From Firmicutes bacterium ZOR0006 (GTDB taxonomy: Bacteria; Bacillota_I; Bacilli_A; Culicoidibacterales; ZOR0006): a DNA stretch of 46,789 bases. Positions 9,204 through 34,759 of this stretch are shown here, in pieces (within the stretch, counting starts at the first letter, position 1; each line of letters opens with the position of its first letter). The stretch lies in the NCBI GenBank assembly GCA_000798955.1, contig JTLC01000035.1, forward strand, positions 1 to 46,789, in the 5' to 3' direction. The notes beneath the pieces were generated by a model, which was not told where the DNA came from, did no database searches, and saw only the letters and a list, made by a program, of their open reading frames with translations. Made by a program: the position numbers and the translations under genes.

Positions 9204-9899
9204 TTAGTTTTCCTCGATTTTGGTCATATTTTGAAATAATGTTAAGCGAAAATCACGAACATGTGTGCCATAGTTTCCTTTATGGTATGGTGTTACTTTG
9301 GCTTGAAACTGAATTCGTTGACCACTTTCATATGGTTGCTGTGCTTGAAAAACTGCTGTATATGTCGTCCACAAGTGATCCGTAATCAGTTCACCTGTTG
9401 TTTGTAACCGTACATCAGTTAACAAAATCGTTTTTCCTTCGTCGTAACTACCACGTTTTTCTCCAAAGCGCATGACTTTTGCCTCACAGTTGATTGTTTG
9501 GTTCGCCCACGTGAGCAATGGTCGGACAGCACCGTGTGCTTGCTTGCGTAAACTCGCCAATTGTTTCAATGTTGCGAGTTGGGAAAACTGCTGTGTCATT
9601 GCCAATTCTTGAAAAACATCATACCCATGTTCACCAACATAAATTCCAATCTCGAGCTTTTGGCATTGCGCAAATAAGTCGAGAATCACCTGTTGTTCCG
9701 CTGCGGTAAAAGGCATACCTGTCCGATAATAATCACTACTATTATATTCGAGTTTGGCAATTTGGCAGTACCCATCCGGGCGTACGGCTTCGATGATTAA
9801 TTGCTGGGGATCATAGCCACCTTGAAACTCAATGCCACGCACCTCAATAATGTCATGTGCTTGAATCTGTGCTATTTCCAATGTTTGATAATGAATCAT
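9204..9899 (-). CDS. Conserved protein with a C-terminal OB-fold-like region
   Basis: A 231-residue cytoplasmic protein I cannot name. Residues ~135-225 show an OB-like strand pattern: INCEAKVMRFGEKRG, TILLTDVR, DHLWTTYTAVF, GQRIQFQAKVTPYHKGNYG, then RDFRLT. The order 'DHLW ... G-x-x-x-x-F-x-A-x-V ... Y-x-K-G ... D-(F/Y)-R-L' recurs in uncharacterised phage and chromosomal nucleic-acid-binding proteins. The N-terminal half holds a short beta region and a helical middle. AAGGAG (9910-9905) is 5 bases before the ATG at 9899; an in-frame start at 9932 has no ribosome binding site. It is directly followed by the Sm-like gene. Confidence 0.65.
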   Translation of the reverse strand: MIHYQTLEIAQIQAHDIIEVRGIEFQGGYDPQQLIIEAVRPDGYCQIAKLEYNSSDYYRTGMPFTAAEQQVILDLFAQCQKLEIGIYVGEHGYDVFQELAMTQQFSQLATLKQLASLRKQAHGAVRPLLTWANQTINCEAKVMRFGEKRGSYDEGKTILLTDVRLQTTGELITDHLWTTYTAVFQAQQPYESGQRIQFQAKVTPYHKGNYGTHVRDFRLTLFQNMTKIEEN

Positions 9900-9978
9900 A
9901 TGTGCTCCTTGTTTCCTTGATTTCTGATTCATTATACCAAAAAAAGTGTCCTGATGATATCATTGATTCCCAAAAAGC

Positions 9979-10215
9979 TTATTCTGCTGGAGTGGCAATT
10001 TCAATTGTTGCTATCGCTGCTTGTAATAAGCGCATTTCTTGAGGGGTTAACGTAATGCCTTTCGTCATTTTATCATGTTCTGGTGACCACTCGCGCAAAT
10101 CATATTTTGCTGGATGGCCATTCCAACTAATTACATTTAATTCTTTTGTCCAGCCTTGATTCGATTGTGATAAAATTCCTAAGTTCTGTTCAATTGTGTA
10201 CGTAAAATTATCCAT
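9979..10215 (-). CDS. ydbC: YdbC-like PC4-fold single-strand nucleic-acid-binding protein
   Basis: A 78-residue protein of the bacterial PC4-like YdbC family, which forms a dimer with a curved beta-sheet that binds single-stranded DNA, as shown for Lactococcus YdbC. The diagnostic run is visible: GILSQSNQGWTKELNVISWNG, PAKYDLREWSPEHDKMTKG, then ITLTPQEMRLLQAAI as the C-terminal helix. Aromatic and basic residues (W, K, Y, R, W) lie on the expected binding face. AAGGAG precedes the ATG. It lies just upstream of two other putative nucleic-acid-binding genes on the same strand. Confidence 0.9.
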   Translation of the reverse strand: MDNFTYTIEQNLGILSQSNQGWTKELNVISWNGHPAKYDLREWSPEHDKMTKGITLTPQEMRLLQAAIATIEIATPAE

Positions 10216-10325
10216 ATTTTGTCTCCTTTTTCGACAATCAAATTTGAAGAAAATTTATTCTTCACTTATATATACCCACTTTGACACGCTAGTGGCTTTT
10301 TTTTGATAAAAAAATTGATTTTACT

Positions 10326-10365
10326 GAAAAAGAAGATCACTTCCTGACTTAAAGTGACCTTCTTC
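10326..10365 (-). terminator. Terminator after the ABC exporter operon
   Basis: Read leftward, a hairpin with arms 10363-10352 and 10342-10331 (11 of 12 bases paired, one mismatch) is followed by TTTTTC. It lies about 10 bases after the stop at 10373. Confidence 0.75.
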
Positions 10366-10372
10366 GACGATT

Positions 10373-12163
10373 TTATTCAACAAATTGATTATGATATAGT
10401 TCCGCGTAAAAGCCATTTTCTTGCATTAATTCCTGATGATTCCCACGTTCAATGATTTCACCATCACGTAATACGATAATGACATCAGCACGTAAAATTG
10501 TTTTCAGGCGATGAGCAATAACAAAGCTCGTCCGTCCATGTAAGACATTATCCATTGCTTTTTGAATTTTTGCTTCCGTAACCGTATCAACATTACTTGT
10601 TGCTTCATCAAGAATCAACAAGTCTGGATCAGTTAAGATTGTCCGAGCGATACTTAACAATTGTTTTTGCCCAGTGCTAAAAACGCTCGTCGCATTCGTT
10701 ACTTCGGTTTCATACCCTTTTTCTAAACTCATGATAAAATCATGTAGATTGGCTAATTTGGCTGCAGTTTCAACTTCGCTCTGGGCTGCATCATGCTTCC
10801 CATAACAAATATTCTCCCGAATTGTTCCCGAAAAAATCGTTGATTCTTGCAAAACAATTCCGACTTTTTCACGAAGTGACTCTAATGTGTACGTTTTAAT
10901 GTCATTTCCATCAATGGTAATCACCCCTGATTCAACATCATAAAAGCGATTCATTAAATTCATCACAGTCGTTTTACCTGATCCAGTTGGTCCGACTAAC
11001 GCAACCATCTGACCGCGCTTCACAGTCATCGAAATATCTTTTAATACGGGTTTTTCTGGTTCATAGCCAAATGAAACATGCTGTAATTCCACGGCACCAG
11101 AAATTTTCGCGATTGGCTGAGCATCAGTCTGATCTGTAACATCACTTTGTTGCGAGAAAATGTGTGACACCCGATTTGCTCCTGTCAAAGCTAATTGCAA
11201 TAAATTATATTGAGAAGCAATTTGACTCAAAGGTTGAAAAAATCGCTGTGAATACTGTACAAATGCCACAAGTAAGCCAATTGTCACTGTGCCATTAATC
11301 GCCAAGTTACTCCCAACAAAAATAATCATCGCTGTATTCAACAAGCTAATCCCTTGAATCATTGGAAAGAGAATACCTGAATAAATTTGCCCTTTTATCG
11401 ATGTTTTTTTCAAAGCTTCATTATACGTTAGAAAGCCTTCCACTGTTTCTGCTTCTAAACCATAACTAATAATGACTTTTTGACCGGAAATTTTTTCATC
11501 AATATACCCATTTAATTCACTCAATCGTGCTTGCTGTGCATCGACATAAATTTTTGCTTTTCTGACAATGATTGACGATAAAAAGACGACGATTGGCCCC
11601 ATAATGAGCGTAACAAGTGCTAAGGTAATATTTTCACGAATCATCATAATAATAATTCCTATTAATAAGGCAATATTAGACAAAACTTGGATTAATGATT
11701 GGCTCATCATTGTCGAAATATTATCAATGTCATTCGTAAAATTACTTTGAATCTCACCATCACTACTTTGATCAAAAAAACGAATTGAGAGCGATTCTAA
11801 TTTTTTGAATAATTCAATTCGCATCGCATTCGTGGCTTTTCCAGCCATGGTTGACATCATAAAGTTTTGAATAAACATCCCAAATGACGTCGCTACAAAT
11901 GCTCCAATTAAAAAGACAATTGCTTGTGTAAATGTCTCAAAAGCTGCGGTGGGATCACCATTTGGCGCAAAATTACTCGTAACATAAGTCGCTAGTGCAT
12001 CAATGGCATCTCCAAGCAGAAGTGGTGAAATGACTTGGAAATACGTTGAGGTAACAATCATAATTGCTACGACTACTAATTGCCAGCGATATGTTTTGAC
12101 ATATTGCCATAAAAAACGAATACTTTTAATATTTTCTTTTATTCCTGATTTTTTATTCGCCAT
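10373..12163 (-). CDS. ABC exporter half-transporter, catalytic subunit of a heterodimer
   Basis: Fused membrane-plus-ATPase exporter subunit (LmrCD/BmrCD/TM287-288 type) for drugs or lipids. Six membrane helices occupy residues ~25-320, and the ATPase domain follows. Walker A GPTGSGKTT (391-399), Walker B LLILDE with catalytic Glu520, and switch His551 are all canonical. The signature, however, is STGQK (496-500) instead of SGGQ. That odd signature faces the degenerate half-site of the partner encoded upstream, as in known asymmetric heterodimers. The ATG at 12163 overlaps the partner's stop by 11 bases; longer in-frame starts lie inside the partner gene and lack good ribosome binding sites. 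Confidence 0.93.
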   Translation of the reverse strand: MANKKSGIKENIKSIRFLWQYVKTYRWQLVVVAIMIVTSTYFQVISPLLLGDAIDALATYVTSNFAPNGDPTAAFETFTQAIVFLIGAFVATSFGMFIQNFMMSTMAGKATNAMRIELFKKLESLSIRFFDQSSDGEIQSNFTNDIDNISTMMSQSLIQVLSNIALLIGIIIMMIRENITLALVTLIMGPIVVFLSSIIVRKAKIYVDAQQARLSELNGYIDEKISGQKVIISYGLEAETVEGFLTYNEALKKTSIKGQIYSGILFPMIQGISLLNTAMIIFVGSNLAINGTVTIGLLVAFVQYSQRFFQPLSQIASQYNLLQLALTGANRVSHIFSQQSDVTDQTDAQPIAKISGAVELQHVSFGYEPEKPVLKDISMTVKRGQMVALVGPTGSGKTTVMNLMNRFYDVESGVITIDGNDIKTYTLESLREKVGIVLQESTIFSGTIRENICYGKHDAAQSEVETAAKLANLHDFIMSLEKGYETEVTNATSVFSTGQKQLLSIARTILTDPDLLILDEATSNVDTVTEAKIQKAMDNVLHGRTSFVIAHRLKTILRADVIIVLRDGEIIERGNHQELMQENGFYAELYHNQFVE

Positions 12164-22815: not shown

Positions 22816-23559
22816 TTAGTGATGTAATGCCAAAAGGTGTTGCACACGTTCTGTAGCATAGCGCCAAGCCATTGGTTCTGTCTTCATCGCTACTTTGACA
22901 ATTGCTTCATCATCTCGTAGTGGTAATGCTGCATATTTCAATGACTTCCCATTTTGTTTGACTGCTGTTTTGACAAAATCATAATCTTCACGATATTCAT
23001 GGAATGCATGTTTTAACATCATCCCTTCACTTCGAATCGCTGCCCACCAAAATTCTGGTTGTCCCCAATATTTTTTACTGAGCTCATGTACACCAATCAG
23101 TGCCGAACCTTTAATTAAGACAACACGTAACGCAAATTCTGGATCAGCCCATAATTCTGCCGGTACAAAGGCTAAATTGCGCTCATAGCTATCCCCAACT
23201 AAGGCAATTTGGCTCACAGACGGCTTCAAGCGTAAATTTAAGCCTAAATACGGATAAATATGAGCCAACTCCTCAACTGTTAATCCATATAAAATTCGCT
23301 CATCATATAAAACACTCACATCAGCGTACATAATTAAATGCTCTTCTGATTGTCCGCGGTCAGCAACTTGCAAAATAAACTCGACATCACGTCGCAAGCG
23401 ATCACTCGCATATTTAAAATTGGCAGTATCTTGGTAGATTGCTGCTGCCATCACAGTTTCATCATCGTTGATTGCTGGATGTTGTTGATACAAATTGATG
23501 AATGTTTCCCCCATCATCAATTGATTAATGATTGTTTCTTGAAGATTTTCTTTCATCAT
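22816..23559 (-). CDS. DUF4116-repeat protein
   Basis: A 247-residue soluble helical protein. The recurring pattern 'D-x-(E/D)-x-V-x-x-A-x-x-x-(D/E)...(L/F)-x-(Y/H)-A-S-x-x-L-R-x-D' matches DUF4116-type repeats: NDDETVMAAAIYQDTANFKYASDRLRRD near the N-terminus and YDFVKTAVKQNGKSLKYAALPLRDDEAIVKVAMK near the end. Only the outer repeats are well conserved; the middle (~100-190) is divergent. DUF4116 repeats form helical solenoids of unknown role, often multi-copy in protists and some bacteria. AGGGGG precedes a double ATG, so the start may be 23559 or 23556. Alone on its strand. Confidence 0.72.
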   Translation of the reverse strand: MMKENLQETIINQLMMGETFINLYQQHPAINDDETVMAAAIYQDTANFKYASDRLRRDVEFILQVADRGQSEEHLIMYADVSVLYDERILYGLTVEELAHIYPYLGLNLRLKPSVSQIALVGDSYERNLAFVPAELWADPEFALRVVLIKGSALIGVHELSKKYWGQPEFWWAAIRSEGMMLKHAFHEYREDYDFVKTAVKQNGKSLKYAALPLRDDEAIVKVAMKTEPMAWRYATERVQHLLALHH

Positions 23560-24050: not shown

Positions 24051-24095
24051 TTTTTAGGCTACACAATTTTGTACCAATGTTTATATACAAAACGC

Positions 24096-24132
24096 AAAGG
24101 GACTGCCCACTTTTAGTGGCAGTCCCTTTTTT
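24096..24132. terminator. Bidirectional terminator
   Basis: AAAGGGACTGCC (24096-24107) pairs with GGCAGTCCCTTT (24118-24129), extended inside by CAC/GTG around a one-base bulge, then a T-run. Confidence 0.92.
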
Positions 24133-24421
24133 AGATGCGAACATCATCATCGTTATACATCACTTTTGAATAATCACCAAGGTCAATGCCTTTTACACCG
24201 CGCGGATGATAATACGCTAACGTTTTCAAGGCATCCAAGGCATCACCAATTTCATTATCTCGCCGAAGTTGTTGTGCAATATCAAGGACTTTCATCTCGT
24301 ATTTATAGCCTTGACGACCACCACAACGGAGATAAAATTCAAGACAAAACGGAACAAGGTCAATAATGGAAATATGTGTATAATCAATTTCGGCTAAGTG
24401 CGCGTAGTTATCTTTTTTCAT
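24131..24421 (-). CDS. Hypothetical small protein at the end of the yceG-like cluster
   Basis: Unrecognised 96-residue soluble protein, mixed alpha/beta. Notable runs are FCLEFYLRCGGRQGYKYEMKV and TLAYYHPRGVKG, with an acidic tail (MYNDDDVRI). AGGAAG lies 7 bases before the ATG. It is the last gene of the leftward run beginning at 29049 and ends at a strong terminator. It is separated from the 43-residue gene by only 11 bases, so co-transcription is likely. No function can be proposed. Confidence 0.65.
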   Translation of the reverse strand: MKKDNYAHLAEIDYTHISIIDLVPFCLEFYLRCGGRQGYKYEMKVLDIAQQLRRDNEIGDALDALKTLAYYHPRGVKGIDLGDYSKVMYNDDDVRI

Positions 24422-24432
24422 CGCTTCACTTC

Positions 24433-24564
24433 CTATGCTGTCACTTTATCTGTTCGTTTCAAGGCGCGCAGAATTACACCGCAGACTGTGGTGATTGTCA
24501 GCAAAACCGTTGCTGCTAACATTCCTGCCAGTAGTATTAAACCAAAAATGTCCATTTGTGTCAT
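24433..24564 (-). CDS. Small single-pass membrane protein (43 residues)
   Basis: Translating the space between the two neighbouring genes gives a 43-residue frame starting MTQMDIFGLILLAGML and ending LKRTDKVTA. Residues ~5-34 are hydrophobic, forming one membrane helix, followed by a basic tail (RALKRTDK), so the C-terminus should be cytoplasmic. GAGGAA (24576-24571) is 6 bases before the ATG. It fits exactly between its neighbours without overlap, in the same direction, which argues that it is a real gene. Another in-frame ATG at 24588 has no ribosome binding site. Family unknown. Confidence 0.6.
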   Translation of the reverse strand: MTQMDIFGLILLAGMLAATVLLTITTVCGVILRALKRTDKVTA

Positions 24565-24591
24565 TTTTTCTTCCTCATTTTCATTCATAAA

Positions 24592-25218
24592 TTATTTTGA
24601 ATTTATTTGATCAGCTGTTTGATCAACAACAACCGTTTCTTTTGCTTGAATCGGATTTTCTTCTCGTGTTGGGGCACTGACTTCCGGCTCTAGCTCACTC
24701 TCTACAACTGTACTTTCTGCAAAGTTACTGTCCCCACTGTCAGTTTCAGGAGTTGGCACTGCTTCAGATGGCATTGCCGTATTTGTCCCCTCTGCTGTTG
24801 GCGATGGATTCGCAGTTGAACTATCGGCTGGTGCTTTCGTCATTGTTTTAAATTTTTCAAATAATTTATTCCCTTTTTCTTGAAGTTTTTCACCAACTTC
24901 ACGGAAATCAACATCATTTAAATGATTACTTGCTTGGCCTAGTTTTTCCGCAACAAAATCCTTCGCTTGATTGGCAGTCTGCGCTGCTTGTTCTTGTATT
25001 TTTGCCCCTTTATCTACCAATTGCTCATCTAATTGTGCTTGTAGCCCTTGAATTCTCGTTTCAAAATCGGCTGTTCGTTGTTCTAATTGTTGATCTAATT
25101 CACCAATTTTCGTATTTGCTGCGAGTAATTTTTGCTCTAGTTCAGTAATTTTCTGTTCTAATTCTACTGTGTACTGATTAATTTTTTGATCAACTTCTTT
25201 ATTATTCCAAAGTGCCAT
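24592..25218 (-). CDS. Coiled-coil protein with disordered acidic tail
   Basis: A 208-residue protein in two parts. Residues ~8-75 form a strong coiled coil (repeats such as ELEQKITELEQKLLAANTKI and LDQQLEQR), followed by an Ala/Gln-rich helix to ~130 (IQEQAAQTANQAKDFVAEKL). From ~130 to the end it is low-complexity Pro/Ser/Thr/Glu (PADSSTANPSPTAEGTNT), probably unstructured. No membrane helix or signal peptide is seen, so it is cytoplasmic. It looks like a scaffold or adaptor. The next gene upstream ends 24 bases earlier and is probably co-transcribed. Not a family I recognise. Confidence 0.7.
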   Translation of the reverse strand: MALWNNKEVDQKINQYTVELEQKITELEQKLLAANTKIGELDQQLEQRTADFETRIQGLQAQLDEQLVDKGAKIQEQAAQTANQAKDFVAEKLGQASNHLNDVDFREVGEKLQEKGNKLFEKFKTMTKAPADSSTANPSPTAEGTNTAMPSEAVPTPETDSGDSNFAESTVVESELEPEVSAPTREENPIQAKETVVVDQTADQINSK

Positions 25219-25241
25219 AAAAAATCCCTTCTTTCTTGTGT

Positions 25242-25751
25242 TTAAAACAGTGTTCCTCCCGCACGAATAATCTTAATCCGTTGTTCTTCCGGCGAAAGCT
25301 GACTGATTTTTTGCATTGCGATAAATTGTGTTGCTTTTAAATAATATAAACGATTTGCACAGAGTGCTAAAATAAATGCACCAAAAATACTGGTGATCAT
25401 CAAAATCAGAAACCATAATGCTGCTTGAGCGTACATTTTGCGATACACGAGCCAGAGTGGTCCGAGAAAAAATGCTGCCCAATTCCAACTGACTTTACCA
25501 CCACGCAAACAAAACTTAGGAAGATAATAATTTTGATTCTTTTGAATGTAGTTCGCATATTCACTTTCAAGAACTCCTGACCGTGTTGACTTCCCCTGTG
25601 GCTGTTGCGGCGGTGGTTGTTCGGATGTTGCTTGTTGTACCGGTGCTTCTGGCTCTGGTTGAATTTGCGGTTCAACACTTCCATACGGTGTACGTGGTTC
25701 AACTTTAGCATACGGTCGACCTTTTTCATCGAATTGTGGCTGTTGATTCAT
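25242..25751 (-). CDS. DUF2628-domain membrane protein with Pro/Gln-rich head
   Basis: A 169-residue protein. Residues 1-~65 are polar and Pro/Gln-rich (EPEAPVQQATSEQPPPQQPQ), probably disordered. From ~70 comes a DUF2628-like domain: NYYLPKFCLRGGKVSWNWAAFFLGPLWLVYRKMYAQAALWF, a signature hydrophobic block, then a second membrane segment and a short Gln/Glu-rich tail. The domain's function is unknown; members tend to sit in the membrane with soluble heads inside the cell. The ATG at 25751 (MNQQPQF) with AGGTGAGAG upstream is preferred to a GTG three codons earlier. It lies 15 bases after the YceG-like gene. Confidence 0.78.
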   Translation of the reverse strand: MNQQPQFDEKGRPYAKVEPRTPYGSVEPQIQPEPEAPVQQATSEQPPPQQPQGKSTRSGVLESEYANYIQKNQNYYLPKFCLRGGKVSWNWAAFFLGPLWLVYRKMYAQAALWFLILMITSIFGAFILALCANRLYYLKATQFIAMQKISQLSPEEQRIKIIRAGGTLF

Positions 25752-25766
25752 CTCTCTCACCTACTT

Positions 25767-27317
25767 TCATTTACGCCAAAACCATTTCCGCTGTTTAGTC
25801 ATACTCGCTTTTGGTTGCGGATATTCAAACCAGTGGTGTGGTAACTGGTGAATTTGAATAGCTTCTGGAGCCAAAAACCGATCCAAATCGCTCCGACTCG
25901 AAGGATTTAAGCTAATAATATCATATCCTAAGTGATGAAGAAAGCGTAAAACGATGGCATCTTCAGCACTTAACAATCCCGAAACTTGACTATGAATTGT
26001 AAGCACTTTTGGTACTTCTCTTGCATAGTCAAATTGCTCTAGTTGTTGAATAAACGGATCCGGCAAATCAATGAGTGTCCCTAAGATTTGTCCTTGTTGT
26101 TCCCGTTTTGATTCTGAGTTAATATGTAAGTTTATATCTTCTAATGTACTAATCATCGCTGCTGTAAGCTTTTTTTGTAACGCGATACTTAAACTTTGAT
26201 ATCGCCACCAAATCGCTTTCATCATATACTCCGGAACAAATTGACCATTTGCACTCTCGATTTCTGCCAAATAATATTCGTAATTCATCAGAATTGGTGA
26301 CATAAATGGAAACTGTTCAAGAATAATGGTATTGGGAAGTGCGCGAACTAACTGAATCAATTCACTTAGTTGTTCTGGCGTTTCAACACCATTGATTTTC
26401 GTCAATAAAACCGGTAGCGAAACAATCCCTTTTTCAACATGAAACCCGGGACGAAATGGTGCCTGTTGACCAAGATACAAAGCAACTTCAGCAAAAGTCG
26501 TCGTCAAATGTAGGCTTTTCGTTTGGTAGTTACGTAATTGCCATGGACGATATAACCCGCTAATCCCATCATCTAATAACTGCTCAAGCTTATTTGAAGC
26601 TTGTTGTGCAGTTGTTGCTACAACTGCTCGGCGTTTAGTTGGGAATGCAATAACTTCATGACAATTGGGAAACTTCTGCATGTGACTCCATTGATTACAG
26701 TCGGGGAAAAACTGATGGAGCCAGTCAGTTTGATCAGGTGCAAAAATCAAAACATCAAAATGAAGTTGCATCCACACTGCTAAAAATCCGGCTTGCGCAT
26801 ATGTCATTGGACCATACCAAATACATTTTGCTGTCGGGACTGTACGTGCAATGACAACGTTCAAATAGCGCTGGAGGTACGAAATTATTTCAATAATTTG
26901 GGGAATTGTCATCCCACTTGGACCGAGCAAGGTTTCAAAAACAGTGACATACGCTTGATAATAAAATTCATGGAACTGTGATTGAGCTGGTAGTGGTAAA
27001 ATATTTTGACCAAGCAAGTGAACAACAAATGGTTCTGCTGGCTTCCCAGTTTGTAACAATTGCTGAATGCTACTGACTTGCTCACTACTCAATATGTGAC
27101 TTTGAATATTAAACTGATGGAGCACAAACAAATCCACTTGCAAACTATAGTCATACAAGAGGTTAAAGTAGTGATCCTCATCTTCAAAGCAACCAAGCAT
27201 TCGGCCACTAAAATACCCTGGTGTTTCATTATTTAAAATTTCGGCTCGTGACGTACTATTCAAAGGGAATAATTCTTCAAAGCGGGCTAAATCAATTTGC
27301 CAATCAGGGATTTGCAT
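25767..27317 (-). CDS. YceG-family protein ('biosynthetic module' component)
   Basis: A 516-residue soluble protein with the two signature segments of the bacterial YceG family (distinct from the MltG/YceG lytic transglycosylase). Segment one is IWYGPMTYAQAGFLAVWMQLHFDVLIFAPD around residue 170, and segment two is PKVLTIHSQVSGLLSAEDAIVLRFLHHLGYDIISLNP near 455. In other Firmicutes yceG lies with yceH (TelA-like) and TerD-family genes, in operons proposed to make or use a small metabolite in metal or membrane stress; the reaction is not established. Here neither TerD nor TelA is adjacent. The ATG at 27317 has AAGGAG 9 bases away and overlaps the end of the cyclase gene by 14 bases. Confidence 0.75.
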   Translation of the reverse strand: MQIPDWQIDLARFEELFPLNSTSRAEILNNETPGYFSGRMLGCFEDEDHYFNLLYDYSLQVDLFVLHQFNIQSHILSSEQVSSIQQLLQTGKPAEPFVVHLLGQNILPLPAQSQFHEFYYQAYVTVFETLLGPSGMTIPQIIEIISYLQRYLNVVIARTVPTAKCIWYGPMTYAQAGFLAVWMQLHFDVLIFAPDQTDWLHQFFPDCNQWSHMQKFPNCHEVIAFPTKRRAVVATTAQQASNKLEQLLDDGISGLYRPWQLRNYQTKSLHLTTTFAEVALYLGQQAPFRPGFHVEKGIVSLPVLLTKINGVETPEQLSELIQLVRALPNTIILEQFPFMSPILMNYEYYLAEIESANGQFVPEYMMKAIWWRYQSLSIALQKKLTAAMISTLEDINLHINSESKREQQGQILGTLIDLPDPFIQQLEQFDYAREVPKVLTIHSQVSGLLSAEDAIVLRFLHHLGYDIISLNPSSRSDLDRFLAPEAIQIHQLPHHWFEYPQPKASMTKQRKWFWRK

Positions 27318-27963
27318 GCTCACACTCTCCTTTCTCTTCTATTTCTACGACAGCAACCGCACGGACTGGACTACCATCACTTGCAATTGGTAAAGGATAC
27401 GCTTGAATTTCACACCACATTGGGAGCTTATCTAGCTGGCACAAATTTTCAATTAAGAGAATTTCAGCACCTAATAGTACTTCATGGTTCGCAAATTGCG
27501 TTGCTGTCAATGCATCAAAAGATGGTGCGTCAATACCAATCAGGTGTAATGATTGGGTCGCAAGCCAACGAGTCAGTGCCACTGGCAATACCGGATACTC
27601 TTGATAATATTGTGATTGTCCATAATATTGTGACCATCCTGTGGTAATGAGCAGAATTTCTGCCTGTTGTATCGCCGCTTCGTGCTGCGCAATCCACTCA
27701 TTCATTGGTGTTATTGGGAATGGTGCAACATACGCCTTCCCTTGAAAATATTCCAGGGGAAAAGCCGTTATCAGTTTACCGTCAGCAAACATATGTGCTG
27801 GTACATCAACATGCGTTCCTAGATGTGAATGAATCATATATGTTGTCAATGCATAGCCATCATTGGCAACTGTCGCTTCTCGATTACTGCCAAACTCGGG
27901 ATCACCGGGATAATTACTGATGTGGCTCCAAGGTTGTGTTAAATCAATTATTTTTCGTTTCAT
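27304..27963 (-). CDS. Metal-dependent cyclase/kynurenine-formamidase-like hydrolase
   Basis: A 219-residue enzyme of the cyclase family (Pfam 'Cyclase', which includes bacterial kynurenine formamidase KynB). The metal motif HxGTHxDxPxH is perfect: HLGTHVDVPAH at residues 47-57. A later metal or catalytic region is GIDAPSFDALT. Members hydrolyse N-formyl or cyclic amide and ester substrates with zinc or manganese in the cytoplasm. No tryptophan catabolism genes are nearby, so the substrate is probably something else. GGGGGTG is 8 bases before the ATG at 27963. It overlaps the reductase gene upstream by 20 bases, and its own end overlaps the YceG gene, a strong sign of one operon. Confidence 0.85.
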   Translation of the reverse strand: MKRKIIDLTQPWSHISNYPGDPEFGSNREATVANDGYALTTYMIHSHLGTHVDVPAHMFADGKLITAFPLEYFQGKAYVAPFPITPMNEWIAQHEAAIQQAEILLITTGWSQYYGQSQYYQEYPVLPVALTRWLATQSLHLIGIDAPSFDALTATQFANHEVLLGAEILLIENLCQLDKLPMWCEIQAYPLPIASDGSPVRAVAVVEIEEKGECEHANP

Positions 27964-28792
27964 CTTCACTACACCCCCATTTTAATGGCCATGATGTAAA
28001 GCCTTGTTGTTCCAAGGCTAGCGGTGCTGCACACAATTGCACATTTTCACGAGTATTATCAGCTTGCAAATAGCTTTCAATTTGCTCAGCAGTGAGACCA
28101 AGTGATTGGAATACTTGAGCAAAGACACGACCCAATTGCAGTGGTGTCGTTTGTGCAACATTATAAATTCCAGGGGCCAAAGCTTGTTCACACGCTGCCT
28201 GCACAACGGCACATGTCAAACGAACATCACATGGATACTGCCATGCTTGCGGATGATACGCGAGCCTTTGTTCTTGGAGTTTCGTATTTGCTACGAGCCG
28301 ATAGATACCGTGTGGTTGTTGCTTATCTGCGAGTGCTTGCCAACCAAGACGTAAAATAATAGCATTGGGTATCAAAGCCTGTACTTTTTTTTCGGCTATA
28401 AGTTTTAATTCACCATAATATGTTTGTGGCCGTGGGAGTGTTGCTTCCGTCTTTATTTCAGCTGTGAATTTATCATAGACTTGATCAGAACTGATAAAAA
28501 TAAAACGACTCCCCTGTTCTTTTGCCGCCTGTGCTAGCGTTTCACTCAAAACGACATGGCTTTGATAGGCAGCCTCACGTTCAATGTCACATTGGCGGAC
28601 ATCAGCCATTGCTGCCGCATGAATAATAATGTCCGGTTGATATTTTTGGAGCTGTGCTTGTACAATCGACAATTGTGTTAAATCTCCATGTGTCCGGTTT
28701 AAACCAATAATTTCCCAAGTTTGTGGGAGACGTTGTTTCAATTGCTTGCCTAAAAAACCACGATCTCCAGTTAAAATAATTTTCATTGTCAT
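27944..28792 (-). CDS. RmlD-like NAD(P)-dependent sugar reductase (extended SDR)
   Basis: A 282-residue short-chain dehydrogenase of the RmlD substrate-binding type. The Rossmann fold starts with ILTGDRGFLG (6-15), and AAAMADVRQCDIE is the usual early helix. Catalytic residues are in SSDQVYD (101-107) and in the YxxxK pair Tyr126/Lys130 of TYYGELK. Family members reduce dTDP-4-keto-rhamnose, or act as epimerase/MAT2B-like proteins. Sugar-nucleotide genes rmlABC are absent nearby, so the substrate is uncertain. The ATG at 28792 has AAAGG 5 bases upstream; an in-frame ATG two codons later is also possible. The last bases overlap the cyclase gene. Confidence 0.82.
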   Translation of the reverse strand: MTMKIILTGDRGFLGKQLKQRLPQTWEIIGLNRTHGDLTQLSIVQAQLQKYQPDIIIHAAAMADVRQCDIEREAAYQSHVVLSETLAQAAKEQGSRFIFISSDQVYDKFTAEIKTEATLPRPQTYYGELKLIAEKKVQALIPNAIILRLGWQALADKQQPHGIYRLVANTKLQEQRLAYHPQAWQYPCDVRLTCAVVQAACEQALAPGIYNVAQTTPLQLGRVFAQVFQSLGLTAEQIESYLQADNTRENVQLCAAPLALEQQGFTSWPLKWGCSEDETKNN

Positions 28793-28812
28793 CGTTACCT
28801 TTCTCGACACAC

Positions 28813-29049
28813 TTACTGTTCAGTTGCTTCCGTGTATAATAATTGTGCAATCCCGTACATGACTGCTGCTATCGCCAGCCAGATGCCTAAGCTCACGATT
28901 GCATCGGCAATTGGAAAAACGACTTCTGGATAGAGTCCTTTAATTTGAATCGTATATTCAAACCCTTGACGAATTGCGATAATTATTCCAATACCACCGC
29001 TAGCAAGTGTTAAAAAAAGAAATAACATACGTAGCCCTTTTTTCATCAT
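28813..29049 (-). CDS. Small two-helix membrane protein
   Basis: A 78-residue hydrophobic protein with two clear membrane segments (about residues 8-26 and 45-70) joined by a short polar loop, and a Glu-rich end (TEATEQ). No family recognised. AAGGTGG lies before an ATGATG double start. It is the first gene of the leftward run into the RmlD-like gene, which starts 20 bases after its stop, so it may be co-transcribed. It could anchor a complex at the membrane, but nothing in the sequence shows that. Confidence 0.65.
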   Translation of the reverse strand: MMKKGLRMLFLFLTLASGGIGIIIAIRQGFEYTIQIKGLYPEVVFPIADAIVSLGIWLAIAAVMYGIAQLLYTEATEQ

Positions 29050-29185: not shown

Positions 29186-29560
29186 ATGACTTGCCTTGGT
29201 AATTTTATTTGGTGGTTTTTAGGTGGTTTTTTCGGCGCCATCACTTGGTGGTTCTTTGGTATTCTCTGGAGCATCACAATCATTGGTCTCCCAATCGGAA
29301 AACAATGTTTTAAAATGGCACGCCTCCAATTCGCACCATTCGGTAAAGAAGTTGTTACCGTTGATGATTCAAAAAGTAGTTTCTTTTTAAATATTTTATG
29401 GCTGATTTTTGGTGGTCTTGAACTTGCCCTTGTGAATCTTATCAGTGCTGTGTTACTGACAATTTCAATTATTGGTATTCCTTTTGCAATTCAATCATTA
29501 AAACTCGCGAAACTTTCACTCATGCCTTTTGGGAAAGATATCGTGGCAAAAATCGACTAA
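29186..29560 (+). CDS. YccF-domain membrane protein
   Basis: A 124-residue inner-membrane protein of the YccF (DUF307) family. Two copies of the domain are visible: NFIWWFLGGFFGAITWWFFGILWSITIIGLPIGKQCFKMARLQFAPFG and NILWLIFGGLELALVNLISAVLLTISIIGIPFAIQSLKLAKLSLMPFG. Each is a pair of hydrophobic segments ending in P-F-G. The function is unknown. AAAGGTGG lies 9 bases before the ATG. Divergent from the small membrane protein gene on its left, with a shared terminator on its right. Confidence 0.88.
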   Translation: MTCLGNFIWWFLGGFFGAITWWFFGILWSITIIGLPIGKQCFKMARLQFAPFGKEVVTVDDSKSSFFLNILWLIFGGLELALVNLISAVLLTISIIGIPFAIQSLKLAKLSLMPFGKDIVAKID

Positions 29561-32612: not shown

Positions 32613-32999
32613 ATGTTTATACTCAATCATTACTCTAGCCAGATAATTGGTCCAATCTTCCAAGTAGAAAAACTTACGACCGATGATAGTCTCGAAGTGA
32701 ATTTCTTACTCACCTTAAAGGTGCTCCGTGCCTTTCATGATTCTAACAATCAACCTGTCTATGACTTCCTCAACTGCTTGGTTCCTGCTCCTCAATTTTA
32801 CGCACTCAAAAATGACAGTCTCATCGGTGAAACTGCCATTATCTCGGGTTCGCTCACTACTCTTGTTTGTGATGGTCAAGAGCAACTTTTACTTCAAGCG
32901 CATTCGGTTGTTTTGAAATCTGCATATGCGCAGCATGCTTATGTGCCAGCTGCTGGAGTTGTTGAAAATAATTCACAGTCAGTGCCAATAATCTGCTAG
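32613..32999 (+). CDS. Divergent SSB-like OB-fold protein
   Basis: A 128-residue protein resembling a reduced single-strand DNA-binding protein. The order matches an SSB core: IIGPIFQVEKL, VNFLLTLKVLRAF, QPVYDFLNCLVPAPQFYAL, LIGETAIISGSLTTLV, then QLLLQAHSVVLKS. The usual aromatic residues and the acidic C-terminal tip of true SSBs are missing, and identity is low, so DNA binding is uncertain. AAGGAGGG lies 5 bases before the ATG, overlapping the stop of the previous gene. The last 143 bases overlap the convergent exporter gene, and no terminator is seen between them. Confidence 0.6.
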   Translation: MFILNHYSSQIIGPIFQVEKLTTDDSLEVNFLLTLKVLRAFHDSNNQPVYDFLNCLVPAPQFYALKNDSLIGETAIISGSLTTLVCDGQEQLLLQAHSVVLKSAYAQHAYVPAAGVVENNSQSVPIIC

Positions 33000-33816
33000 T
33001 ACTCCATGTGCTCACGATAAAATGTTCTGGTATCGTATAACAAAACAAAGTACCTCGTTCCTGTTTCGCAACGAGAACTTGGAAATAATCATGGTGCATC
33101 CGCAATGCATATTGTAACTCTTGTTGAACTGGTAGTGGCAGTGATTCTTTGCTTGTCCGCATTTCCGACTGAAGTTCAAGTAAGTGTTGATTGAGCTGAA
33201 CAAAATCGGATTCATCTTCACTTAACAATTGAATGGCTACTGCCGGTAGTGGCTCGAGTTTTGGGAATGAAAGCGTCATGATTTCTCGCGGTGTGCGCCA
33301 CATAAATTCATGGAGCAATTGTGAAAGCTGCAGAAATTGGTGATAGACTAATTTTGTTGCTTTCTTTTTTGTATACCTTTGAGCAAATAACCAGGAAACA
33401 ACAAAGGCGATACTTAAGCTCATCGCTTTGATCAAAATTCGTTCCACTGTCGCATCAGCTAAGGTTTCAGCTTGAAAAATGATAAAAGCCGCAATTGCCA
33501 ATGGCAATGATGGAATCCAAAATTTTAACCAAATTGGTAAGGTTAACACTAGCACTAAAATCATGGCGACTCCGATATAGACGTTGTGAATCGTCAGTGC
33601 CAACATCACTCCGAGTGAAATCCCTACAATTTGTGCTGAAATTTGACCTTTGATATTAAATGTTGCCGATTCTTGTGTTGGCGATAAAATTAAAATAATA
33701 AAGTTTGCAATCAGGGCACTGCTTGTTAAAGGATAATCAATGAACCAAAAAAAAGCAATTGTGGCACTCATACCTGTTAACACTTGAAAAATTTGTCTTT
33801 TATCAATGGTTTGCAT
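32857..33816 (-). CDS. Aromatic-acid-exporter-like membrane protein (FUSC/ArAE type), second of a pair
   Basis: A 319-residue protein. About 150 N-terminal residues hold five or six membrane segments (for example GMSATIAFFWFIDYPLTSSALIANFIILILSP), and ~150 C-terminal residues form a soluble helical domain with a final coiled region (LALTVNYFQQLQQLAHKHAAH). This is the layout of Firmicutes YgaE/FusC-like aromatic acid exporters, which expel small organic acids. AAGGAG is 7 bases before the ATG at 33816. The start lies 14 bases inside the first gene of the pair. Its 3' end overlaps the convergent SSB-like gene. Confidence 0.78.
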   Translation of the reverse strand: MQTIDKRQIFQVLTGMSATIAFFWFIDYPLTSSALIANFIILILSPTQESATFNIKGQISAQIVGISLGVMLALTIHNVYIGVAMILVLVLTLPIWLKFWIPSLPLAIAAFIIFQAETLADATVERILIKAMSLSIAFVVSWLFAQRYTKKKATKLVYHQFLQLSQLLHEFMWRTPREIMTLSFPKLEPLPAVAIQLLSEDESDFVQLNQHLLELQSEMRTSKESLPLPVQQELQYALRMHHDYFQVLVAKQERGTLFCYTIPEHFIVSTWSTSRLLALTVNYFQQLQQLAHKHAAHMQISKQPNALEVKVALDHHKQE

Positions 33817-34759
33817 CACATAACTCCTTTTGCCATAACTCAACTGCTTGCTCGAGTTGTTGTAAATACTGCGATAATGTATAAATAGCCAGCGAGTGAC
33901 TCAATTCATGATCATAGACTGCTTGTGGACGTTGGTAGCGCAAAATTGGACATGATCCTAAATCTTGGTACAACGTTTCTAACAGTAAGCGATGCACCCT
34001 TTGCCCATGATGAAATTCTTCTCGAATCCATTGCGGTGCATCAGCTTCATTTATTTGGTTCAAGACATCGAGTGCCCGTGCAGTTAATTCATTCGCATTT
34101 TCATATAAAATAACATGTTTGTGGTAGCGTGCTCGCCAATCACTCCCCCACATATGGTAACTCGTAATTGTTTGTTGTAATAACCGGTATTCTTCCATAA
34201 ATGTCGCTTGTTCGCGCGGTGTAATCAGTTGTTTTTTCTGACAATTACGTTCTGTATAGGTGAAAATTTTGAGTGTTTGTTGATAAATTCGCTTATCGAT
34301 AAACCAACCATTCCCAAGCGGCAATAATACCCGTGAAAGTGGGTATGCAATGGCTGCTGTCGCTAATAATGGCAATAAATATTGCCAAATTGATTGTGTT
34401 GGTTCAAGTAAATATTCACTGCCAACTAAAAACACGGCAATCAGCATCATCAACGAAACACCTTGACCAAGCACATATGGTAATAGTAGGACAATGAGTC
34501 CATACACTAGAATTGCTAGCGGTCCGGACAGTAATAGTACCAAGAAAGGAAGTGCTACGAAAGCTCCATACTGCGCAACAATTACTTTCCAGCTCCATTC
34601 TTGTTTCCTTGTGAGTGGGGGAACGAGAAAGAAAAACCACATAAAAATAATTAAAATTGTCGTCAATTCAAATTGCAGCAACTCTAAGAGTCCCATTGTG
34701 ACCAAAATACCAATAATTTGTTTACTGATTTGCCAAAGGTAGACACTATATTTTGTCAT
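33803..34759 (-). CDS. Aromatic-acid-exporter-like membrane protein (FUSC/ArAE type), first of a pair
   Basis: A 318-residue protein with the same plan as the next gene: about five N-terminal membrane segments (TILIIFMWFFFLVPPL, ALPFLVLLLSGPLAILVYGLIVLLLPYV) and a long helical cytoplasmic tail from ~155 (ATFMEEYRLLQQTITSYHMW, QYLQQLEQAVELWQKELC). The two halves overlap by 14 bases and are probably subunits of one transporter, since one family member alone carries only half of the ~650-residue ArAE fold. A GGAG precedes the ATG. Substrate unknown. Confidence 0.75.
   Translation of the reverse strand: MTKYSVYLWQISKQIIGILVTMGLLELLQFELTTILIIFMWFFFLVPPLTRKQEWSWKVIVAQYGAFVALPFLVLLLSGPLAILVYGLIVLLLPYVLGQGVSLMMLIAVFLVGSEYLLEPTQSIWQYLLPLLATAAIAYPLSRVLLPLGNGWFIDKRIYQQTLKIFTYTERNCQKKQLITPREQATFMEEYRLLQQTITSYHMWGSDWRARYHKHVILYENANELTARALDVLNQINEADAPQWIREEFHHGQRVHRLLLETLYQDLGSCPILRYQRPQAVYDHELSHSLAIYTLSQYLQQLEQAVELWQKELCDANH

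What the first reader, a model, noticed from the sequence alone, without database searches (positions are those of the whole stretch)
24131..29049. Orphan YceG module: YceG with an RmlD-like reductase, a metal cyclase and membrane/coiled-coil partners, without TerD/TelA
Seen: eight leftward genes with tiny gaps or overlaps (20 bp reductase/cyclase, 14 bp cyclase/YceG). Known: the YceG_bac family is normally part of the 'biosynthetic module' of tellurite/Ter stress operons, whose reaction is not established. Here it is placed with two enzymes (SDR sugar reductase, HxGTHxDxPxH hydrolase), a DUF2628 membrane protein with a disordered head, a coiled-coil protein with a disordered tail, and two tiny proteins. 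Inference: a stand-alone pathway that makes or modifies a small metabolite, possibly at the membrane, derived from or independent of the Ter systems.
Basis: partly seen in the sequence, partly recalled or inferred. Interest (0 to 1): 0.62.

Follow-up and report, generated by a model that had tools for sequence, protein, structure and literature searches.

The report
YceG displaced into a composite operon
A bacterial stress-resistance protein of unknown chemistry (YceG), which normally sits beside its partner TelA in tellurite/stress operons, is here found apart from TelA, inside an eight-gene operon built from a five-gene block placed in front of three older genes; this gives a new but unproven clue to what YceG does.

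Summary
In detail: eight co-directional, tightly packed genes (29049 to 24131, minus strand) with a terminator at the end. They include a genuine two-repeat YceG_bac protein, an RmlD-like reductase, a cyclase/formamidase-like hydrolase, a DUF2628 protein, a coiled-coil protein and three small proteins. The YceG is the only one in the genome. TerD and the C-C bond lyase are absent, but TelA is present, alone, on another contig, so 'without TelA' is true only locally. The sister species carries a complete canonical Ter locus: lyase, PRTase, StiP, HAD, YceG, TelA and three TerD. At the place matching this operon it has only the last three genes (coiled coil, tiny membrane protein, 96-aa protein) next to yccF. 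The operon is therefore composite: a conserved three-gene unit plus a five-gene block (tm78, SDR, cyclase, YceG, DUF2628). The window's YceG and the lone TelA both fall with Turicibacter and Lactococcus, on the other side of a supported split from the sister's pair. I read it as a YceG-TelA unit that lost TerD and was split apart, with YceG placed beside two small-molecule enzymes, probably in cell-envelope or oxidative stress. The reaction is unknown; structure prediction was uninformative. New variant of a known kind.

The parts
28813..29049 (-). tm78: 78-aa protein with two predicted membrane helices; first gene of the operon and of the five-gene block
   Evidence: ORF; hydropathy segments 5-28 and 42-72; no Pfam family above cut-off
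27944..28792 (-). SDR: RmlD-like extended short-chain dehydrogenase/reductase with intact TGxxGxxG, SSD and YxxxK motifs
   Evidence: PF04321 112.5 bits; TIGR01214 rmlD equivalog 110 vs cut-off 224, so not RmlD proper; motifs; no match in the sister species
27304..27963 (-). Cyclase: metal-dependent hydrolase of the kynurenine-formamidase type, motif HLGTHVDVPAH
   Evidence: PF04199 81.2 bits; arylformamidase model 84.5 vs cut-off 223; matches PDB 2b0a and KynB 4co9/4cz1; no match in the sister species
25767..27317 (-). YceG: 516-aa protein made of two YceG_bac repeats; the only YceG in the genome
   Evidence: PF14266 148 bits, two stretches; keeps 27 of 37 conserved family columns
25242..25751 (-). 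DUF2628 membrane protein with a disordered Pro/Gln-rich head; last gene of the five-gene block
   Evidence: PF10947 31.5 bits vs cut-off 23; hydrophobic segment 105-134; no match in four related genomes
24592..25218 (-). Coiled-coil protein with a disordered acidic tail; first gene of the conserved three-gene unit
   Evidence: Ortholog at the matching place in the sister species, L091:2980-3393, 63/132 identical
24433..24564 (-). Tiny 43-aa single-helix membrane protein
   Evidence: Counterpart at the same place in the sister species, L091:3396-3536, 14/43 identical, similar length and hydrophobicity
24131..24421 (-). 96-aa soluble protein of unknown family, last gene
   Evidence: Ortholog L091:3533-3823, 69/96 identical; no Pfam, NCBIfam, PADLOC, plasmid or significant PDB match
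24085..24130 (-). Intrinsic-terminator-like hairpin closing the operon
   Evidence: dG -23.3 kcal/mol, z -5.96 against shuffles
29186..29560 (+). yccF, divergent neighbour; marks the upstream edge of the matching place in both species (not part of the operon)
   Evidence: PF03733 121 bits; 68% identical ortholog directly upstream of the coiled-coil gene in the sister species

Best explanation
This is a composite operon. A three-gene unit (coiled coil, tiny membrane protein, 96-aa protein) is shared with the sister species. In the window's species a five-gene block (tm78, SDR, cyclase, YceG, DUF2628) stands between the divergent yccF and that unit and shares its direction. The YceG derives from a YceG-TelA pair of the Turicibacter/Lactococcus type that lost TerD and was split, since the genome's lone TelA is of the same type. 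Most likely mode of action (inferred): YceG still works with TelA, made elsewhere in the genome, in resistance to cell-envelope or oxidative stress, as the yceG-yceH pair does in Bacillus. The reductase and the formamidase-like hydrolase make or detoxify a small molecule for that response, and the membrane and coiled-coil proteins hold it at the cytoplasmic membrane. Shown: gene content, intact motifs, single YceG, lone TelA, absence of TerD and of the lyase, the arrangement in the sister. Inferred: one transcript, partnership with TelA, stress role, metabolite chemistry.
For: YceG_bac in two repeats, the only copy. TelA alone on contig C57, TerD absent, C-C bond lyase absent. All six reference YceGs whose downstream gene can be read are followed directly by TelA; in the sister, YceG and TelA end two contigs in matching orientation. 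Sister species: full canonical Ter locus, and at the matching place yccF - coiled coil - tiny - 96-aa with no block. SDR, cyclase and DUF2628 absent from the sister. Trees: {window, Turicibacter, Lactococcus} against {sister, Niameybacter, Aneurinibacillus, gut contigs}, support 96.7/97 for YceG and 100/100 for TelA. Catalytic motifs intact. yceGH of B. anthracis is linked to defence against reactive oxygen species (PMC6813211), YceGHI overexpression contributed to nisin resistance of B. subtilis (cited in PMC7864038), and the B. subtilis operon is in the sigma-W regulon (PMC3498285).
Against: No transcript or phenotype data. Only eight YceG and eight TelA sequences in the trees; the exact TelA topology is rejected by the YceG data (p-AU 0.008), so congruence holds only for the deep split. 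The block is seen in one genome only, so selection for the combination is not shown. YceG keeps slightly fewer conserved columns than its relatives (73% against 76-89%). Gain in this lineage and loss in the sister cannot be told apart without an outgroup.
Confidence: 0.5

Rival explanations
1. Independent metabolite pathway: YceG has been taken over by the SDR and cyclase to make or modify a small metabolite at the membrane and no longer works with TelA.
For: Two enzymes with intact motifs overlap each other and YceG by 14-20 bp. TelA is unlinked, TerD and the C-C lyase are gone. YceG is divergent: 19-24% identity to all relatives and the longest branch.
Against: A TelA of the same type is kept in the genome; the combination is seen in one genome only; the YceG reaction is unknown.
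Confidence: 0.25
2. Loose assemblage: genes shuffled into one transcription unit without shared function, with YceG a displaced survivor of a lost Ter locus.
For: The block is missing in the sister species; no family ties DUF2628, SDR and cyclase to YceG; the literature search found no paper on such a cluster.
Against: Tight packing with overlapping starts and one terminator; catalytic motifs and most conserved columns intact.
Confidence: 0.2
3. Non-functional relic: the YceG is decaying after loss of its partners.
For: Slightly fewer conserved columns kept (73% against 76-89%).
Against: Full-length open frame of 516 aa; most invariant polar residues kept (R24, Y168, D188, T235, Q260, R289, K307, Q381, D430, D466).
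Confidence: 0.05

Closest known systems
Canonical Gram-positive Ter locus with biosynthetic module (Lactococcus pFI430; complete in the sister species G001)
   Same: YceG of the same family; TelA present in the genome
   Different: No TerD, no C-C bond lyase; YceG not next to TelA; SDR, cyclase and DUF2628 in place of lyase, PRTase, StiP and HAD
YceG-TelA pairs without the full module next to them (Turicibacter MAG, Aneurinibacillus plasmid, gut contig MT837772)
   Same: No full biosynthetic module next to YceG; Turicibacter lies on the same side of the deep split
   Different: There YceG and TelA are adjacent; here they lie on different contigs, YceG in an unrelated operon
B. subtilis yceCDEFGH (sigma-W/B/M regulon)
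   Same: YceG family member in a multi-gene operon; likely stress role by analogy
   Different: No TerD-type neighbours here; TelA (YceH) not in the operon (PMC3498285; gene identities from established knowledge)
Kynurenine formamidase (KynB) / RmlD
   Same: The hydrolase and the SDR belong to these superfamilies, with motifs intact
   Different: Both score well below the curated equivalog cut-offs, so their substrates are likely different

Membership tests
YceG_bac (PF14266) | Two YceG domains above the curated cut-off | tested here: met
   148 bits vs 25, two stretches
YceG_bac (PF14266) | Conserved family columns kept | tested here: met
   27 of 37 columns (73%); relatives keep 76-89%
Ter system with biosynthetic module | TerD present | tested here: not met
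   No TerD in the own genome; controls rang
Ter system with biosynthetic module | C-C bond lyase present | tested here: not met
   Absent in own genome, present in sister at 365 bits
Ter system with biosynthetic module | PRTase_2/TRSP, StiP/PELOTA and HAD next to YceG | tested here: not met
   None among the neighbours; the rest of the own genome was not searched for them
YceG-TelA unit | TelA directly downstream of YceG | tested here: not met
   TelA lies alone on contig C57; the next gene here is DUF2628
YceG-TelA unit | YceG and TelA of the same lineage | tested here: inconclusive
   Same side of the deep split in both trees (97 and 100 support), finer order unresolved, full topology rejected p-AU 0.008
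Kynurenine formamidase (TIGR03035) | Score over equivalog cut-off | tested here: not met
   84.5 vs 223 bits; HxGTHxDxPxH motif present
dTDP-4-dehydrorhamnose reductase RmlD (TIGR01214) | Score over equivalog cut-off | tested here: not met
   110 vs 224 bits
MltG/YceG of E. coli (lytic transglycosylase) | Homology to MltG | tested here: not met
   Only PF14266 is hit; the shared name is a coincidence

The most novel reading that the evidence does not exclude
YceG has been recruited out of the Ter systems into a membrane-linked pathway with a dehydrogenase and a formamidase-like hydrolase, so that its neighbours here disclose the type of substrate the YceG family acts on.
Probability: 0.2. Interest if true: 0.6.

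Novelty: new variant of a known kind. Interest (0 to 1): 0.42.

Why it matters
The reaction of YceG is not known, and in the reference loci seen here it is always beside TelA and often among TerD and a large biosynthetic module, which makes its own role hard to isolate. A genome with one YceG, one unlinked TelA and no TerD is a reduced natural setting in which YceG and TelA can be tested apart, and the two neighbouring enzymes suggest candidate chemistry. The sister species gives a clean comparison at the same chromosomal place.

Tried and rejected
Structure of YceG: full-length model pLDDT 50 and C-terminal half pLDDT 64; Foldseek found nothing at E <= 0.001, and the ABC-ATPase and eIF2B matches have query TM-scores below 0.3 and are disregarded. 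Sequence search of PDB with the YceG profile: no match. Genome-collection scans for close relatives of this YceG: none with the single sequence, three loci with an alignment; viral collection: none. Anti-phage defence: no convincing PADLOC hit, only coiled-coil noise. Mobile-element signature around the block: no significant boundary repeats, similar GC. Surveys of 395 and 392 genomes of the class/phylum found YceG proteins over the cut-off only in the window's genome, its sister and a Turicibacter MAG, so no conserved-neighbourhood statistics were possible. Anantharaman 2012 and Franks 2014 are not held in the library.

Full report
What is there. Eight minus-strand genes run from 29049 to 24131: tm78 (two membrane helices), an RmlD-like SDR, a cyclase/formamidase-like hydrolase, a two-repeat YceG_bac protein, a DUF2628 membrane protein, a coiled-coil protein with a disordered tail, a 43-aa membrane peptide and a 96-aa soluble protein. 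Pfam assigns YceG_bac at 148 bits (cut-off 25), RmlD_sub_bind at 112.5, Cyclase at 81.2 and DUF2628 at 31.5 (cut-off 23). The SDR keeps TGDRGFLG, SSDQVY and YGELK, and the hydrolase keeps HLGTHVDVPAH. Both enzymes fall well below the equivalog cut-offs of RmlD and kynurenine formamidase, so their substrates are probably others. A strong hairpin with a U-rich tail follows the last gene. The reported 20 bp and 14 bp overlaps are exact with ATG starts. One transcript is likely but not shown.

The rest of the genome. The genome (1.97 Mb, 93 contigs, scored 100% complete) has this YceG only, no TerD and no C-C bond lyase of the biosynthetic module. It does have one TelA, 309 bits, alone on contig C57 between a PTS gene and a 72-aa membrane protein followed by an aminopeptidase-like gene (neighbours recognised from sequence). 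The title's 'without TerD/TelA' is therefore right for the neighbourhood, half right for the genome.

What YceG usually sits with. In a Turicibacter MAG, an Aneurinibacillus plasmid, Lactococcus pFI430, Niameybacter and two human gut contigs, YceG is followed at once by TelA. pFI430 has the whole order lyase, PRTase, StiP, HAD, YceG, TelA, three TerD and a DUF475 protein (the HAD gene is annotated there only as hypothetical). The sister species G001 has the same order, with lyase to YceG on contig C40 and TelA plus three TerD on C32. Both contigs end in the same Met/Asn/Gln/Pro/Gly repeat, so they very likely adjoin (family names for C40, TerD recognised from sequence).

The same place in the sister species. 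Contig C33 of G001 is colinear with window 8.4-24.05 kb, UppP being 85% identical, and ends just before the operon's end. The end of contig C2 holds yccF, then directly the coiled-coil gene, the tiny membrane gene and the 96-aa gene (69/96 identical), with no tm78, SDR, cyclase, YceG or DUF2628 between. SDR, cyclase and DUF2628 have no match anywhere in G001. The eight-gene operon is thus a conserved three-gene unit plus a five-gene block. No boundary repeats or compositional shift mark the block, and without an outgroup gain here and loss there cannot be told apart. The junction of C2 and C33 is not sequenced.

Descent of the YceG. Trees of eight YceGs and eight TelAs both separate {window's genome, Turicibacter, Lactococcus} from {sister G001, Niameybacter, Aneurinibacillus, two gut contigs}, with support 96.7/97 and 100/100. 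Although the two species share 85% identical UppP, their YceGs share only 21%, so the two YceGs are not simple orthologs. The simplest reading is that the window's YceG and TelA stem from one pair of the Turicibacter/Lactococcus type that was later split. The finer TelA order is unresolved, and the YceG data reject the full TelA topology (p-AU 0.008), so this rests on the deep split alone. The YceG keeps 27 of 37 conserved columns, near the range of its relatives, so it is probably functional.

Likely function. In B. anthracis yceGH is linked to defence against reactive oxygen species and to fitness in infection (PMC6813211). [quoted passage not shown] subtilis (cited in PMC7864038). A disrupted telA-like gene in Listeria raises susceptibility to nisin and tellurite (cited in PMC12791056). 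B. subtilis yceC-yceH is in the sigma-W regulon (PMC3498285). I infer an envelope or oxidative-stress role for this operon, with YceG acting with the unlinked TelA and the SDR and hydrolase handling a small molecule. The chemistry of YceG remains unknown: AlphaFold models are poor and Foldseek gives nothing usable. The two halves of YceG align with each other, sharing R, G, P and D columns, which supports an internal duplication.

Verdict. New variant of a known kind, moderate interest.

Noticed in passing
L025 (MT836648.1) 9444-11717: A 757-aa YceG with an extra N-terminal stretch that looks like a third YceG repeat, in a contig with PRTase, StiP, TelA and three TerD.
   Followed up: no
L024 (MT837772.1) and L025 (MT836648.1): Two records filed as bacteriophage from human faeces carry YceG-TelA beside leuA/leuC-like genes, or a full Ter operon with ordinary bacterial genes; they are probably bacterial contigs.
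   Followed up: partly
G001 contigs C40 and C32 (L008, L044): In the sister species TelA begins with a tandem Met-Asn-Gln-Met-Asp/Asn-Pro-Met-Gly repeat, which appears to have split the assembly between YceG and TelA.
   Followed up: partly
window 32857-34759: Two overlapping minus-strand genes occupy about the size of one FUSC-like exporter that is a single 616-aa gene next to yccF in the sister species (L091:462-2312); no Pfam hit for either half.
   Followed up: partly
G001 C33 end and C2 end (L049 15846-15934, L091 3900-4000): Both contig ends near the matching place look like insertion-sequence ends, suggesting an IS copy between the 96-aa gene and the next gene in the sister species.
   Followed up: partly
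L040, L041 (G055 C73, C66): The Turicibacter MAG holds two further partial TelA-like stretches, each broken by a stop codon.
   Followed up: no
window 22816-23559: A protein with DUF4116 repeats (80 bits) next to the operon, conserved in the sister species at 53% identity.
   Followed up: no
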